Shown here piece by piece: positions 48,123 through 54,262 of a DNA stretch of 64,000 bases. This DNA is from Caldifarciminota bacterium (GTDB lineage: Bacteria > Hydrothermota > Hydrothermia > UBA1063 > CAJXJZ01): the NCBI GenBank assembly GCA_026986775.1, contig JALSNX010000020.1, positions 1-64,000 on the forward strand. Direction: 5' to 3'. Each line of letters opens with the position of its first letter. Position 1 is the stretch's first letter. The notes beneath the pieces are model-generated. The model made no database searches, was not told the origin of the DNA, and worked only from the letters and a program-made list of their open reading frames with translations. Position numbers and translations under genes: made by a program.

Positions 48123-48377
48123 ATGGAAACGATTTATGACCATGTGGATAAAAAGACTGCTGATGAGTTTATGCGGAAGTACCTTCCAATGTGGCTTAAA
48201 GAGTTTTCCCGTTATACCCAACAGAATCACTATGTTGTTATAATGGTGTATTATCGTAACACCGGTAATCTTGTGAAAGCCCAAGAATACTTTAATAAGC
48301 TTTCTCCTGGATATCAATACCTTTTTAAAAAATACCTTGACTTTCCCATAGAAAAAGCCTTTAAGATTAGAACCTGA
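48123..48377 (+). CDS. Unrecognised 84-residue protein
   Basis: No family recognised. The peptide is soluble and helix-rich, with many aromatic residues (METIYDHVDKKTADEFM, RYTQQNHYVVIMVYYRNTGN, KLSPGYQYLFKKYLDFP). A TPR-like 'GNLVKAQEYFNKL' stretch is visible in the middle. An upstream in-frame ATG at 48105 is inside the promoter, so ATG 48123 is chosen: it stands 6 bases after the -10 box and has no Shine-Dalgarno. The strong promoter argues that this is a real gene. It is convergent with the broken metallopeptidase gene near the CRISPR array. Confidence 0.6.
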   Translation: METIYDHVDKKTADEFMRKYLPMWLKEFSRYTQQNHYVVIMVYYRNTGNLVKAQEYFNKLSPGYQYLFKKYLDFPIEKAFKIRT

Positions 48378-48389
48378 AAACCTCATTTA

Positions 48390-48873
48390 TTAAACTCCTG
48401 CATTTGTGTCACCGATAATAAAACTTAACTCTCTATTCAACTCGTCAAACCACTTGTATTCTGGGTAGCCACTTATTATTTTCCCAATTACATTAACAAT
48501 TTACATTAACAATATCATCAAATTTCTCTGTATATTGTTGTTTTGCAATATTCAAAAGCATTCCTGCTTCTGGATAGCCGTATGTGTCCTGTAATATCTG
48601 GTTAATAAAATTCAATTTTTCTTTATTATAGCCAAGTGACTCAATAAATTTTGGATATGTTGTTCGGGCGAGAGCCTCAACTAAAGTTTCAACGATGATC
48701 TCGCTGTTGTGCGTAGGGTTTTCTATATACATAGGTGTCTGCCCGTGTATAATTTCATGCCGGAGATTCTTAATAGCCCGCTCCTCATCCAAAGATGTGC
48801 AACATTGTCCCTTAATTTTCTCAGGGCTTCCAGGAACCCACCCAGAAGGTCCTGTGAAAGATACACATTCCGC
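48390..48873 (-). pseudogene. Broken zinc metallopeptidase-like gene (5'-truncated, frameshifted)
   Basis: Two blocks of one protein can be read on the minus strand. Codons from 48873 to 48493 give a frame containing NLRHEIIHGQTPMYIENP, with the HExxH zinc motif and a downstream Glu-rich helix. This frame ends prematurely at VNVNC. The missing end (VIGKIISGYPEYKWFDELNRE and on to a stop at 48390) is in another frame. A 13-bp tandem duplication at 48488-48513 separates them; removing one copy restores one continuous frame. The 5' end is also missing: an in-frame stop lies at 48874-48876 and a decayed CRISPR repeat begins at 48883. A translated 99-residue fragment from TTG 48792 remains possible. 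Confidence 0.65.
48488..48513. repeat. 13-bp tandem duplication causing a frameshift
   Basis: TTACATTAACAAT occurs twice head to tail (48488-48500 and 48501-48513). The 13-base length shifts the reading frame of the metallopeptidase-like gene. Being perfect, the duplication appears recent and could revert by slippage. Confidence 0.85.
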
Positions 48874-48882
48874 TTATTGATA

Positions 48883-48912
48883 CTGCTTTTGTCCCTTAAG
48901 TAGGCTCCTAAC
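48883..48912. repeat. Decayed CRISPR repeat at the array's old end
   Basis: The stretch TCCCTTAAGTAGGCTCCTAAC matches the second half of the repeat consensus (CCCTTTTAGGTAGGCTCAGAAC) with several changes. It lies 36 bases before the first recognisable repeat, exactly one spacer length. It is therefore a degenerated terminal unit of the array. Confidence 0.65.
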
Positions 48913-48948
48913 CACGGGCCTATTTTGATATATATGTGAAAAACTCGC

Positions 48949-51900
48949 ATTTCCATCCCTTATAGGTAGGCTCAGAACCAGGTAATAATTGAAAGGGAAG
49001 AAGTTAAGTTTTTCTGTTTCCATCCCTTTTAGGTAGGCTCAGAACCAACAGTAAGAAGTTATATTCCACTTACATTGTCTTAGTTTCCATCCCTTTTAGG
49101 TAGGCTCAGAACATAAACAAAATTCAAGCTTACGTTACCAGAACTTATGTTTCCATCCCTTTTAGGTAGGCTCAGAACCTTGTAAAGCCTGTTTTGCCTG
49201 TAATGTTCCTTTGCTCTGTTTCCATCCCTTTTAGGTAGGCTCAGAACCAAAAGCCGATTGTACTCCGTATCATTTGGAGTTAGTTTCCATCCCTTTTAGG
49301 TAGGCTCAGAACGCCGCAAGCAAGATGAAAGAGGTCGTGGAAGAAATTATGTTTCCATCCCTTTTAGGTAGGCTCAGAACGAAACACTACGATAACAGAT
49401 GTTAGAGACGAACTTGAGTTTCCATCCCTTTTAGGTAGGCTCAGAACGATTTAAAAGTCGCCGGAGAAAAGGTAGAATAGAGATTGTTTCCATCCCTTTT
49501 AGGTAGGCTCAGAACTCCCCATGCAATGAAAAGTAAATTATGAAGTCTCTGGGTTTCCATCCCTTTTAGGTAGGCTCAGAACTCTCGCATACATATCTTC
49601 AAGATTTCCAGTATCGCCAGTTTCCATCCCTTTTAGGTAGGCTCAGAACCCGCAGAAGGGCATAAAATTTTCTGTCTGCAAGTCGTTTCCATCCCTTTTA
49701 GGTAGGCTCAGAACTTACCTCCTTGTCAACCTTTATTTCTTTACCCTCCATGTTTCCATCCCTTTTAGGTAGGCTCAGAACAGGTTTTTGCCTTACCTTC
49801 ATTTTTAAAAAAGGGGGTTTCCATCCCTTTTAGGTAGGCTCAGAACAGTAGTGTCAGAAAGAAGTATTGATATAGAAAAACCGTGTTTCCATCCCTTTTA
49901 GGTAGGCTCAGAACTCCGCCATATATCCGCTTTCTTTACCCTGCAAAGCCCAGTTTCCATCCCTTTTAGGTAGGCTCAGAACCATGTCGCTATGAGTCGG
50001 ACCGTGTCTGTATATGTGGTTTCCATCCCTTTTAGGTAGGCTCAGAACCAAATCTTGCAAAATCATTGATTGGATATATTAAAGGTTTCCATCCCTTTTA
50101 GGTAGGCTCAGAACTGAATGAACCAGATATTTTAAAAATAACACAGTATCGTTTCCATCCCTTTTAGGTAGGCTCAGAACGTTTTTCTACGAGGTTTATT
50201 ACCATACAAGGTGTAGGTTTCCATCCCTTTTAGGTAGGCTCAGAACTCCGAAACTCCACCACAGAACCCTGAGCCTCAACTTCGTTTCCATCCCTTTTAG
50301 GTAGGCTCAGAACGTTCTGGTAGCTCTGGTGTTGACTGGGGAGCTGTAGTGTTTCCATCCCTTTTAGGTAGGCTCAGAACGGTTCTGGTTCTTGGTCACT
50401 TCAGGCACAGTATGACGAGTTTCCATCCCTTTTAGGTAGGCTCAGAACTCAAGATGAACTTTCACCTCGTGCATATCAAGAGGAGTTTCCATCCCTTTTA
50501 GGTAGGCTCAGAACTTTGCCATGTACTTACGAAGGAAACGACTCGGCTTTCGTTTCCATCCCTTTTAGGTAGGCTCAGAACCCGTCGGCGGTCTTGTTAT
50601 TTCAGCTTTAGGTTCTTTGTTTCCATCCCTTTTAGGTAGGCTCAGAACGGCAAAACCAGCCACAAAGGAAGGAAGCCAAAAACGGTTTCCATCCCTTTTA
50701 GGTAGGCTCAGAACGGTTACCACTAATAACCGATAGATAATGTGTATAAGTGTTTCCATCCCTTTTAGGTAGGCTCAGAACTTGCTGCTGTTTGGGAAAA
50801 TCGCAAGCAAAACATCTTGTTTCCATCCCTTTTAGGTAGGCTCAGAACCATTGATAAGGTCATCAAGTGTATCCTTTCGTATGTCTTGTTTCCATCCCTT
50901 TTAGGTAGGCTCAGAACCCACCAGTATTTTAATCATGTCCTCTTGCTCTTTTGGTTTCCATCCCTTTTAGGTAGGCTCAGAACAATTTGAACTTGTTGAC
51001 AGTGATTATAATGCGCAGGACAGTTTCCATCCCTTTTAGGTAGGCTCAGAACAACCATTTGGGTAATGTTATCACGAGATTACAAACAAAGTTTCCATCC
51101 CTTTTAGGTAGGCTCAGAACTCAATCCTGACAATGTTGGGCTTGTTCTCTGTCATCTGTTTCCATCCCTTTTAGGTAGGCTCAGAACGCTCTTTATTGCA
51201 TCAACAAGCCTGTTTGCTATCGCAGTTTCCATCCCTTTTAGGTAGGCTCAGAACCCAGTCAAGCATCCAGCATTGCGCATTGGCATATATGGGTTTCCAT
51301 CCCTTTTAGGTAGGCTCAGAACGAAATTGAGGATGATACTGATGAAAACGATGAAACTCCGTTTCCATCCCTTTTAGGTAGGCTCAGAACAGGGTCATTT
51401 AAAGCAGTGCCAAGTTGAATTACACTGTTTCCATCCCTTTTAGGTAGGCTCAGAACTACTTGATAAATTAACTGTGTCTTTTCATACTGCATAGTTTCCA
51501 TCCCTTTTAGGTAGGCTCAGAACGTTTTTCTACGAGGTTTATTACCATACAAGGTGTAGGTTTCCATCCCTTTTAGGTAGGCTCAGAACCCGTCCCCGTT
51601 ATCATCATATTGAGCCTGTAAAGACCAGTTTCCATCCCTTTTAGGTAGGCTCAGAACAGAGATTACGAGACCACCCACGGTTTTCTGGACAACGGTTTCC
51701 ATCCCTTTTAGGTAGGCTCAGAACCACCCACAACGAGAGCGATAAGACCGCCAAATGCGGTGTTTCCATCCCTTTTAGGTAGGCTCAGAACAGGGTGGAG
51801 ACTGTGCGGGTAAGGACGAGTGATGTTCCGTTTCCATCCCTTTTAGGTAGGCTCAGAACATTTTAGAGGATGTTCTTCTTGCAAAGGCCACGAGAAGTTT

Positions 51901-54052
51901 CCATCCCTTTTAGGTAGGCTCAGAACGATTACAACCGACAAAAGACTTCTGGACGGAGCAATATGTTTCCATCCCTTTTAGGTAGGCTCAGAACCTTTAA
52001 GAATGTGAGGATTAGACCTGACGGCTCTCGTTTCCATCCCTTTTAGGTAGGCTCAGAACTAATCCTGAATATATTACTAATGTGATGTGGAAATAGTTTC
52101 CATCCCTTTTAGGTAGGCTCAGAACCAAGGACTATGTGGAAAAAGTCAAAAAGGAGATGGCAGTTTCCATCCCTTTTAGGTAGGCTCAGAACCAAGCCAT
52201 TGATACAAATTTCCAAAAACTTTACTTTCGTTTCCATCCCTTTTAGGTAGGCTCAGAACTTGACAATGAAAGGATCCTGTGTATCATAGTTGCCCGGTTT
52301 CCATCCCTTTTAGGTAGGCTCAGAACGCAAAAATGGCTTGCACTCACGGCGCCAGAGCAGGGTTTCCATCCCTTTTAGGTAGGCTCAGAACGACCAACCT
52401 ACAAACTCATACCTTGTATTATATCGGTTTCCATCCCTTTTAGGTAGGCTCAGAACTCCCCGTTATCATCATATTGAGCATGTAAAGACCAGTTTCCATC
52501 CCTTTTAGGTAGGCTCAGAACCCAACCAATCCCGTATCTGCTGAGGAACAGAAATCGGTTTCCATCCCTTTTAGGTAGGCTCAGAACGCAACAATCACAC
52601 GTGGTGGATTTCCAAAGAGCTTAAACGTTTCCATCCCTTTTAGGTAGGCTCAGAACACAATTTACGAGTATAACCCCACCAACGTCCAAGATGTTTCCAT
52701 CCCTTTTAGGTAGGCTCAGAACAAAATATACGTCAAACCCAAGCTTCCTGGACATACGTTTCCATCCCTTTTAGGTAGGCTCAGAACGAGAGTCTCAAAG
52801 ATGAACGCTTTGAATATGAAACTAGTTTCCATCCCTTTTAGGTAGGCTCAGAACTAAACAGGGCAAAGATGAAATCCTGAAGATTGCCAAGTTTCCATCC
52901 CTTTTAGGTAGGCTCAGAACGCCGCAAACACACTTTCAGATTACTTTATGAAAAGGGCGTTTCCATCCCTTTTAGGTAGGCTCAGAACCCGTCCCCGTTA
53001 TCATCATATTGAGCCCGTAAAGACCAGTTTCCATCCCTTTTAGGTAGGCTCAGAACAAGATACAGGTATTTTTTCACTTTAAGGGTATTTCCGTTTCCAT
53101 CCCTTTTAGGTAGGCTCAGAACACAGAAGATATTTAAGCACTTCTATGATTGTTAGTATTGTTTCCATCCCTTTTAGGTAGGCTCAGAACGAACTTTGAC
53201 TTGTGTCTTATTTAATGGTAATTTTGCAGTTTCCATCCCTTTTAGGTAGGCTCAGAACGTTGATTTATTCAAAAAAGCAAAGGGGGAATTATGAGGTTTC
53301 CATCCCTTTTAGGTAGGCTCAGAACTAAGAGATTGATGAATATCACATAATCCACCTTATGTGTTTCCATCCCTTTTAGGTAGGCTCAGAACTCTGCATT
53401 TTTCGCTCCATTGGGTCGGTCAGGGCTTGTTTCCATCCCTTTTAGGTAGGCTCAGAACTTCTGGACATACTAAAAAAACGAAGAACACTCTTAGTTTCCA
53501 TCCCTTTTAGGTAGGCTCAGAACAAGAAACAAGTTATAAGATACATAAGGAACAACTTTGTTTCCATCCCTTTTAGGTAGGCTCAGAACCATGTCCTTTT
53601 GAATTACAAATTATAGAAGGAGAGGGTTTCCATCCCTTTTAGGTAGGCTCAGAACTTTTCATCTTCTGCCTCCCATCTTAATAGCATCGCAGTTTCCATC
53701 CCTTTTAGGTAGGCTCAGAACCTGGATCATTTACCATAGAAGATGTCTGGCAGAGAAGTTTCCATCCCTTTTAGGTAGGCTCAGAACGGTAAAGCTTGCA
53801 CTTGATTACTCTCAGAGAGGCTAGTTTCCATCCCTTTTAGGTAGGCTCAGAACGTTGCCATATGGCGACCCAATTGGGCTTACGATTCGTTTCCATCCCT
53901 TTTAGGTAGGCTCAGAACTGTTTCATATTTCACCGTTCCTTGCCGTTCCCGTTCCTGTTTCCATCCCTTTTAGGTAGGCTCAGAACTGCGAAAGACGGAG
54001 CGGTGCTTGCAAAAGGTGTCAAGTTTCCATCCCTTTTAGGTAGGCTCAGAAC
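48949..54052 (-). CRISPR. CRISPR array, 77 repeats and 76 spacers
   Basis: I count 77 copies of a 30-base repeat. On the plus strand it begins GTTTCCATCCC, continues TTTTAGGTA and ends GGCTCAGAAC. Spacers are about 35-39 bases. The first copy (48949-48978) has two changes (G1 to A, T14 to A); the others I read match the consensus. The changed copy and the decayed unit before it mark the leader-distal end, so the leader is at the right and transcription is on the minus strand. The crRNA 5' handle would then be ATGGAAAC, close to the ATTGAAAC handle of type I-B/III systems. No cas gene lies in the window. Some spacers are duplicated (see findings). Confidence 0.97.
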
Positions 54053-54262
54053 CAATTTATATTATTGTTCCCCAATTATTTGCGCTTTTTATCAAAGAAC
54101 AATTATCACCATGCTACTTTTAATAGTTTGAGGCAGTTTCCGTGAACTGTCAAGACTTCTGTGAAATTTTATGTTTACTTCGTACCCCTGTGATTTTTAC
54201 GCTACTGGAGGTTGAAGTAAATTTGCTCCTTTGGTATAGGTTATATTTTTAATAAGCCTGTT
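54053..54262 (-). promoter_or_regulatory. Probable CRISPR leader
   Basis: This AT-rich, gene-free stretch follows the last perfect repeat at the end with no decay. On the minus strand a possible promoter TTGTTC, 16 bases, AATAAT lies within about 60 bases of the first repeat. No coding frame is supported here. Its leader identity rests on its position at the conserved end of the array. Confidence 0.6.

What the first reader, a model, noticed from the sequence alone, without database searches (positions are those of the whole stretch)
51590..53026. Three near-identical spacers that differ at one codon of the putative target
Spacers at 51590-51627, 52457-52491 and 52989-53026 share CGTTATCATCATATTGAG and TGTAAAGACCA-like ends. 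They differ only around one site (GCCTGT, GCATGT, GCCCGT); one is 3 bases shorter. Read on the opposite strand they encode W-S-L-(Q/H/R)-A-Q-Y-D-D-N-G-D, so all changes hit one codon and alter the residue. The spacers sit apart in the array. This suggests repeated sampling of a protein-coding target that varies at that position, such as a phage receptor-binding or diversity-generating gene, or escape variants being re-captured.
Basis: partly seen in the sequence, partly recalled or inferred. Interest (0 to 1): 0.66.

Follow-up and report, generated by a model that had tools for sequence, protein, structure and literature searches.

The report
CRISPR array re-sampling one viral gene
A bacterium's CRISPR memory array holds three copies of almost the same viral snippet, most likely captured separately from variants of one viral gene, plus a fourth, older snippet from a related version of that gene; this is a clear but fairly ordinary trace of repeated infection by related viruses.

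Summary
Spacers at 51590-51627, 52457-52491 and 52989-53026 share one PAM-side boundary and differ only at crRNA positions 11-12 (CAG/CAT/CGG; Q/H/R); the middle one is 3 nt shorter at the far end. They sit in a 77-repeat array that shares repeat, leader and trailer with a second array beside a complete type I-B cas operon. That fixes the reading frame, shows the segment is conserved between diverged viruses, and makes Q the likely ancestral residue. Spacers 18-21-24 and 38-39-40 also match pairwise in the same order, suggesting repeated infection by related viruses. I favour independent capture of one protospacer site from several alleles (about 0.72); internal duplication plus mutation is the main rival (0.2). 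A hypervariable or diversity-generating residue is weakly supported: two changes share a codon by chance about 6% of the time, many target adenines are untouched, and the changes lie outside the reported I-B seed. Escape-and-recapture is possible but unproven. No protospacer was found in the viral, phage, plasmid or genome collections searched.

The parts
48949..54052 (-). CRISPR array: 76 perfect 30-nt repeats GTTCTGAGCCTACCTAAAAGGGATGGAAAC (49016-54052) plus a degenerate terminal repeat at 48949-48978; 76 spacers, 75 of them between perfect repeats (35-39 nt), numbered W1-W75 from left to right; transcription leftwards
54053..54232 (-). Leader: 96% identical over 120 nt and 89% over 180 nt to the leader of the second array on contig C1, so new spacers enter at the right-hand end
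51590..51627 (-). Spacer W39 (38 nt), oldest of the trio: WSLQAQYDDNGD
52457..52491 (-). Spacer W52 (35 nt), middle: WSLHAQYDDNG; G12T; 3 nt shorter at the PAM-distal end
52989..53026 (-). Spacer W60 (38 nt), newest of the trio: WSLRAQYDDNGD; A11G
50381..50418 (-). Spacer W21: its reverse complement (+ strand) encodes GSGSWSLQAQYDD; six differences from W39 over 26 nt, all synonymous; crRNA on the opposite gene strand
50181..50216 (-). Spacer W18, identical to W38 (frame-1 reading YTLYGNKPRRK)
51524..51559 (-). Spacer W38, identical to W18 and adjacent to W39
50582..50618 (-). Spacer W24 (KEPKAEITRPPT), homologous to W40 by synonymous changes
51658..51694 (-). Spacer W40 (reverse strand EITRPPTVFWTT), homologous to W24, adjacent to W39
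52588..52626 (-). Spacer W54 (FKLFGNPPRVIV), possible diverged homolog of W18/W38 at the same offset from the spacer start; marginal by itself (P about 0.065)
49448..49485 (-). Spacer W7: overlaps a spacer of the second array (C1_4) by 26 identical nt on the same strand, shifted 9 nt; its 5' flank in the target is therefore ...CATATAGTT

Best explanation
The window array is a second, remote array of the genome's type I-B CRISPR-Cas system. Cas1-Cas2-Cas4 captured the same protospacer site of one viral protein-coding gene at least three times, in the order Q allele, H allele, R allele, during separate encounters with related viruses. An older spacer (W21) came from a diverged homolog of the same gene segment. 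The fixed 5' boundary is set by the PAM and the variable 3' boundary by spacer trimming. Shown: sequences, order, frame, homology among spacers, shared leader and repeat with the I-B locus. Inferred: viral origin, independent acquisition, and the cause of the allele changes. My preferred cause is sampling of standing or mildly selected viral variation at a favoured acquisition site, with CRISPR escape as a possible but unproven driver.
For: Identical PAM-side boundary, two allele changes and a 35 versus 38 nt far end in non-adjacent spacers with unrelated neighbours. A far-end length difference needs no special event under re-acquisition. All 76 internal repeats are perfect and exact duplicates elsewhere (W18/W38; C1_48/C1_49) show no mutations, so the arrays do not mutate quickly. 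W21 carries the same peptide by 6/6 synonymous changes (P about 2e-5 against a 1/6 synonymous rate; 8 shared residues, 0/400 shuffles). In a search of 147 genomes of the phylum the degenerate motif occurs only in these four spacers. Repeated sampling is seen elsewhere: W24/W40 are homologous, W7/C1_4 overlap by 26 nt, and the pairs 18-38, 21-39, 24-40 lie in two blocks in the same order (permutation P = 5.5e-5, post hoc). A complete I-B operon (cas8b, cas7, cas5, cas3, cas4, cas1, cas2) adjoins an array with the same repeat and leader.
Against: No protospacer was found, so viral origin, PAM and allele frequencies are not demonstrated. In a survey of 24,090 spacers, duplicate spacers were classed as duplication far more often than re-acquisition (695 against 8; PMC11472070). 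W39 and W60 have the same length and differ at one base, so that pair alone could be a mutated duplicate. The genome is a multi-contig assembly (30 contigs), and reads could not be checked.
Confidence: 0.72

Rival explanations
1. The three spacers are copies made inside the array by repeat-mediated recombination or replication slippage, which later gained two substitutions and, in one copy, a 3-nt deletion at the spacer-repeat junction.
For: Duplication is the commonest source of repeated spacers in a large survey (PMC11472070). Exact duplicates exist in both arrays (W18/W38; C1_48/C1_49 in tandem). W39 and W60 have equal length.
Against: None of the neighbouring spacers is duplicated with them, so block duplication followed by selective loss would be needed twice. 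The deletion would have to stop exactly at the repeat edge. All internal repeats are perfect, and the exact duplicates carry no mutations. W21 shows that the array also sampled this gene segment independently.
Confidence: 0.2
2. A narrower version of the main reading: the H and R alleles are CRISPR escape mutants selected by the older spacer W39, and the host recaptured each one. (Its probability is contained in that of the main reading.)
For: The Q spacer is oldest. H and R are each one step from Q. Changes between homologs are 6 synonymous:0 non-synonymous, but 0:2 within the trio (Fisher p = 0.036), as expected if the recent changes were selected.
Against: Positions 11 and 12 lie just outside the 10-nt type I-B seed reported for Haloferax (PMC4326828), and position 12 is one of the flipped-out crRNA bases in I-E Cascade (PMC5965380). 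Single mismatches there should escape poorly. Two changes are too few to separate selection from chance.
Confidence: 0.2
3. The target residue is diversified by a diversity-generating retroelement or is a hypervariable receptor-binding residue.
For: All changes in the trio fall in one codon and alter the residue.
Against: DGR mutagenesis replaces adenines (general knowledge), but one change is at a G and the other adenines of the segment, including the AAC codon, are unchanged in all three spacers. The residue is also Q in the diverged homolog W21. Two random changes share a codon with P about 0.06.
Confidence: 0.03
4. The copies are an assembly artefact that merges arrays of several strains.
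For: The genome is held as 30 contigs, and repeat-rich arrays can mis-assemble.
Against: Each unit has unique neighbours within about 67 bases and all repeats are clean. Merged strains would still mean that different alleles were captured.
Confidence: 0.05

Closest known systems
Type I-B CRISPR-Cas (Cas8b/TM1802, Cas7/Csh2, Cas5, Cas3, Cas4, Cas1, Cas2)
   Same: Complete operon in the same genome next to an array with the same repeat, leader and trailer; spacer lengths 35-40 nt
   Different: The window array stands apart from any cas genes; a type III-A-like Cas10/Csm3 set lies in the same cas region and might also use the crRNAs
Re-acquired or independently acquired near-identical spacers in one array (classified in SpacerPlacer, PMC11472070; CRISPRStudio notes separate acquisition as a source of near-identical spacers, PMC6267562)
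   Same: Same target site represented more than once, with small differences
   Different: Here three alleles, a length variant and a synonymous homolog of the same segment occur in one array
Hot-spring virus-host arms race with variants in protospacers (e.g. TC-CHP58 cyanophage, PMC6129581)
   Same: Target variants inside protospacers, including non-synonymous ones
   Different: There the virus was in hand; here only the host's record is seen and the alleles are inferred from spacers

Membership tests
Type I-B CRISPR-Cas system | Cas8b large subunit with Cas7/Cas5 of the I-B type | tested here: met
   PADLOC Cas8b 4.6e-92, Cas7b 2.9e-90, Cas5b 7.1e-53; Pfam Cas_TM1802 9.7e-98
Type I-B CRISPR-Cas system | Cas3 and the adaptation genes cas4, cas1, cas2 beside an array with this repeat | tested here: met
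   Pfam hits to Cas3 C-terminal, Cas4, Cas1 and Cas2; array starts at C1:171631 directly downstream
Type I-B CRISPR-Cas system | The window array uses the same repeat and leader, i.e. is likely served by this adaptation module | tested here: met
   Identical repeat; leader 96% over 120 nt, trailer 95% over 150 nt. Functional use not testable here
Independent re-acquisition of one protospacer | Common PAM-side boundary with variable far end | tested here: met
   Same 5' start TGGTCTTTAC; lengths 38, 35, 38
Independent re-acquisition of one protospacer | Alleles present in the target virus population | tested here: inconclusive
   No target found in IMG/VR, GTDB genomes, INPHARED phages or plasmids
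Diversity-generating retroelement target | Substitutions confined to adenines of a template, spread over many codons | tested here: not met
   One change is at G; the other adenines are unchanged
CRISPR escape mutation | Change in the PAM or seed that abolishes interference | not testable with these tools
   Changes at positions 11-12, outside the reported 10-nt I-B seed (PMC4326828); effect on interference unmeasured

The most novel reading that the evidence does not exclude
The array is a dated log of successive infection waves by one virus group: each wave left spacers at the same few homologous sites (alpha: W18, W38, possibly W54; beta: W21, W39, W52, W60; gamma: W24, W40), in the same order, across viruses that differ at most third codon positions. 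This would mean that acquisition or selection focuses on conserved sites strongly enough to recur in diverged viruses, perhaps through priming by the older homologous spacers.
Probability: 0.25. Interest if true: 0.55.

Novelty: new member of a known kind. Interest (0 to 1): 0.36.

Why it matters
One array that stores several alleles and a synonymous homolog of the same gene segment gives evolutionary information about an unseen virus: its reading frame, which residues are conserved, and the order in which alleles appeared. It also gives a compact test of whether I-B systems repeatedly favour the same protospacer site, and whether changes just outside the seed let viruses escape.

Tried and rejected
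The IMG/VR scan for the degenerate W-S-L-x-A-Q-Y-D-D motif gave two chance hits, neither a matching gene. The GTDB scan of the motif gave ten loci, none a plausible homolog. AQYDDNGD in IMG/VR gave two contigs with a related viral protein (371-aa open frame) that lacks the WSL part; taken as chance. Scans for EITRPPT, GRWWGY, RPPTVFWT, the 26-nt W7/C1_4 overlap and the W18 peptide gave nothing convincing. BLAST of the 72 distinct window spacers against phages gave only E >= 0.3; tblastn of the joined peptides against phages and plasmids found nothing. Arrays of a same-genus genome and two other array types of the same genome share no spacers with this array. GRWWGY (C1_35/W55) is within chance for 6-residue matches (0.32 pairs expected per shuffle). 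No Rfam match in the region.

Full report
What is there. The window carries a CRISPR array at 48949-54052: 76 perfect copies of a 30-nt repeat plus one degenerate terminal copy at 48949-48978. The degenerate end is on the left. On the right, the 120 nt outside the last repeat are 96% identical to the leader of a second array on contig C1, so the array is transcribed leftwards (repeat GTTCTGAGCCTACCTAAAAGGGATGGAAAC) and new spacers enter on the right. The second array (51 copies, same repeat, same trailer) lies directly downstream of cas8b-cas7-cas5-cas3-cas4-cas1-cas2 of subtype I-B. A Cas10/Csm3 type III set lies in the same cas region. The window array is therefore a remote array most likely served by the I-B system.

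The three spacers. In crRNA orientation all start TGGTCTTTAC. They differ at positions 11 and 12 (CAG, CAT, CGG), and W52 lacks the last three bases. By array order Q is oldest, then H, then R; H and R are each one step from Q.

A fourth spacer of the same gene segment. W21 (50381-50418), read on the opposite strand, encodes GSGSWSLQAQYDD. Over the 26 shared bases it differs from W39 at six positions, all synonymous. With 1/6 of single changes synonymous in this stretch, six of six has P about 2e-5. An 8-residue match between two spacers was not seen in 400 dinucleotide shuffles of all 122 distinct spacers of the two I-B arrays, and a 7-residue match was seen in 4. In a search of 147 genomes of the phylum the degenerate motif was found only in these four spacers. 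So the frame W-S-L-x-A-Q-Y-D-D is real, the segment is under purifying selection, and Q is the likely ancestral residue.

Independent capture or internal copying. The PAM-side end is fixed and the far end varies, as expected when Cas1-Cas2-Cas4 take the same site more than once. Internal copying would need two non-adjacent single-unit copies without their neighbours, two substitutions, and a 3-nt deletion ending exactly at a repeat. All internal repeats are perfect, and the exact duplicates in both arrays show no mutations. The general prior is against re-acquisition: a survey of 24,090 spacers classed 695 duplicate events as duplications and 8 as re-acquisitions (PMC11472070). I keep copying at 0.2.

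Is the codon special? Two random changes fall in one codon with P about 0.06, and in one codon, both non-synonymous and not stops, with P about 0.03. Between W39 and W21 the changes are 6 synonymous and 0 non-synonymous; within the trio 0 and 2 (Fisher p = 0.036). This is suggestive of selection on the recent changes but rests on two events. A diversity-generating element is unlikely, since one change is at G and the many other adenines are unchanged. Escape is possible, but positions 11-12 lie outside the 10-nt seed reported for Haloferax I-B (PMC4326828), and position 12 is one of the crRNA bases flipped out in I-E Cascade (PMC5965380).

A wider pattern. W18 is identical to W38. W24 and W40 encode the same 7 residues (EITRPPT, or VGGLVIS on the other strand) with only third-position changes, on opposite strands. 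W21 pairs with W39. So blocks 18-24 and 38-40 hold three homologous pairs in the same order (permutation P = 5.5e-5, chosen after seeing the data). W54, two units from W52, reads FKLFGNPPR at the same offset as YTLYGNKPR of W18/W38 (marginal alone, P about 0.065). W7 overlaps a spacer of the second array by 26 nt with a 9-nt shift. Together these look like repeated infection by a group of related viruses that are sampled at recurring sites.

What could not be shown. No protospacer was found in IMG/VR, GTDB genomes, phage or plasmid records. The target's identity, the PAM and the allele frequencies therefore remain open.

Verdict. A correct and well-spotted observation, best read as repeated capture of one gene segment from related viruses by an ordinary I-B system.

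Noticed in passing
window 50181-50618 and 51524-51694: Three homologous spacer pairs (W18=W38, W21~W39, W24~W40) lie in two blocks in the same order, two of the pairs on opposite strands; looks like two infection episodes by related viruses.
   Followed up: yes
window 49448-49485 and L041 (second array, spacer C1_4): Two spacers in different arrays overlap by 26 identical nt with a 9-nt shift on the same strand, which reveals the 5' flank (...CATATAGTT) of the W7 protospacer.
   Followed up: partly
L041, array C1:171631-174996: Spacers C1_48 and C1_49, close to the old end of the second array, are identical and adjacent, a probable tandem duplication.
   Followed up: no
window 48300-48950 and L041 6989-7830: The sequence beyond the old end of both arrays is 95% identical over 150 nt, and the open frames beyond it look related, so array plus flank was probably copied to a second place in the genome.
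   Followed up: no
L039 6336-10251 and L042 10921-12984: Two further CRISPR loci with other repeats and their own cas1 genes; at the C19 locus the spacers are unusually long (40-58 nt) and a protein that looks like a CARF-type sensor joined to a sigma54-type AAA domain lies among the cas genes (read by eye, not tested).
   Followed up: no
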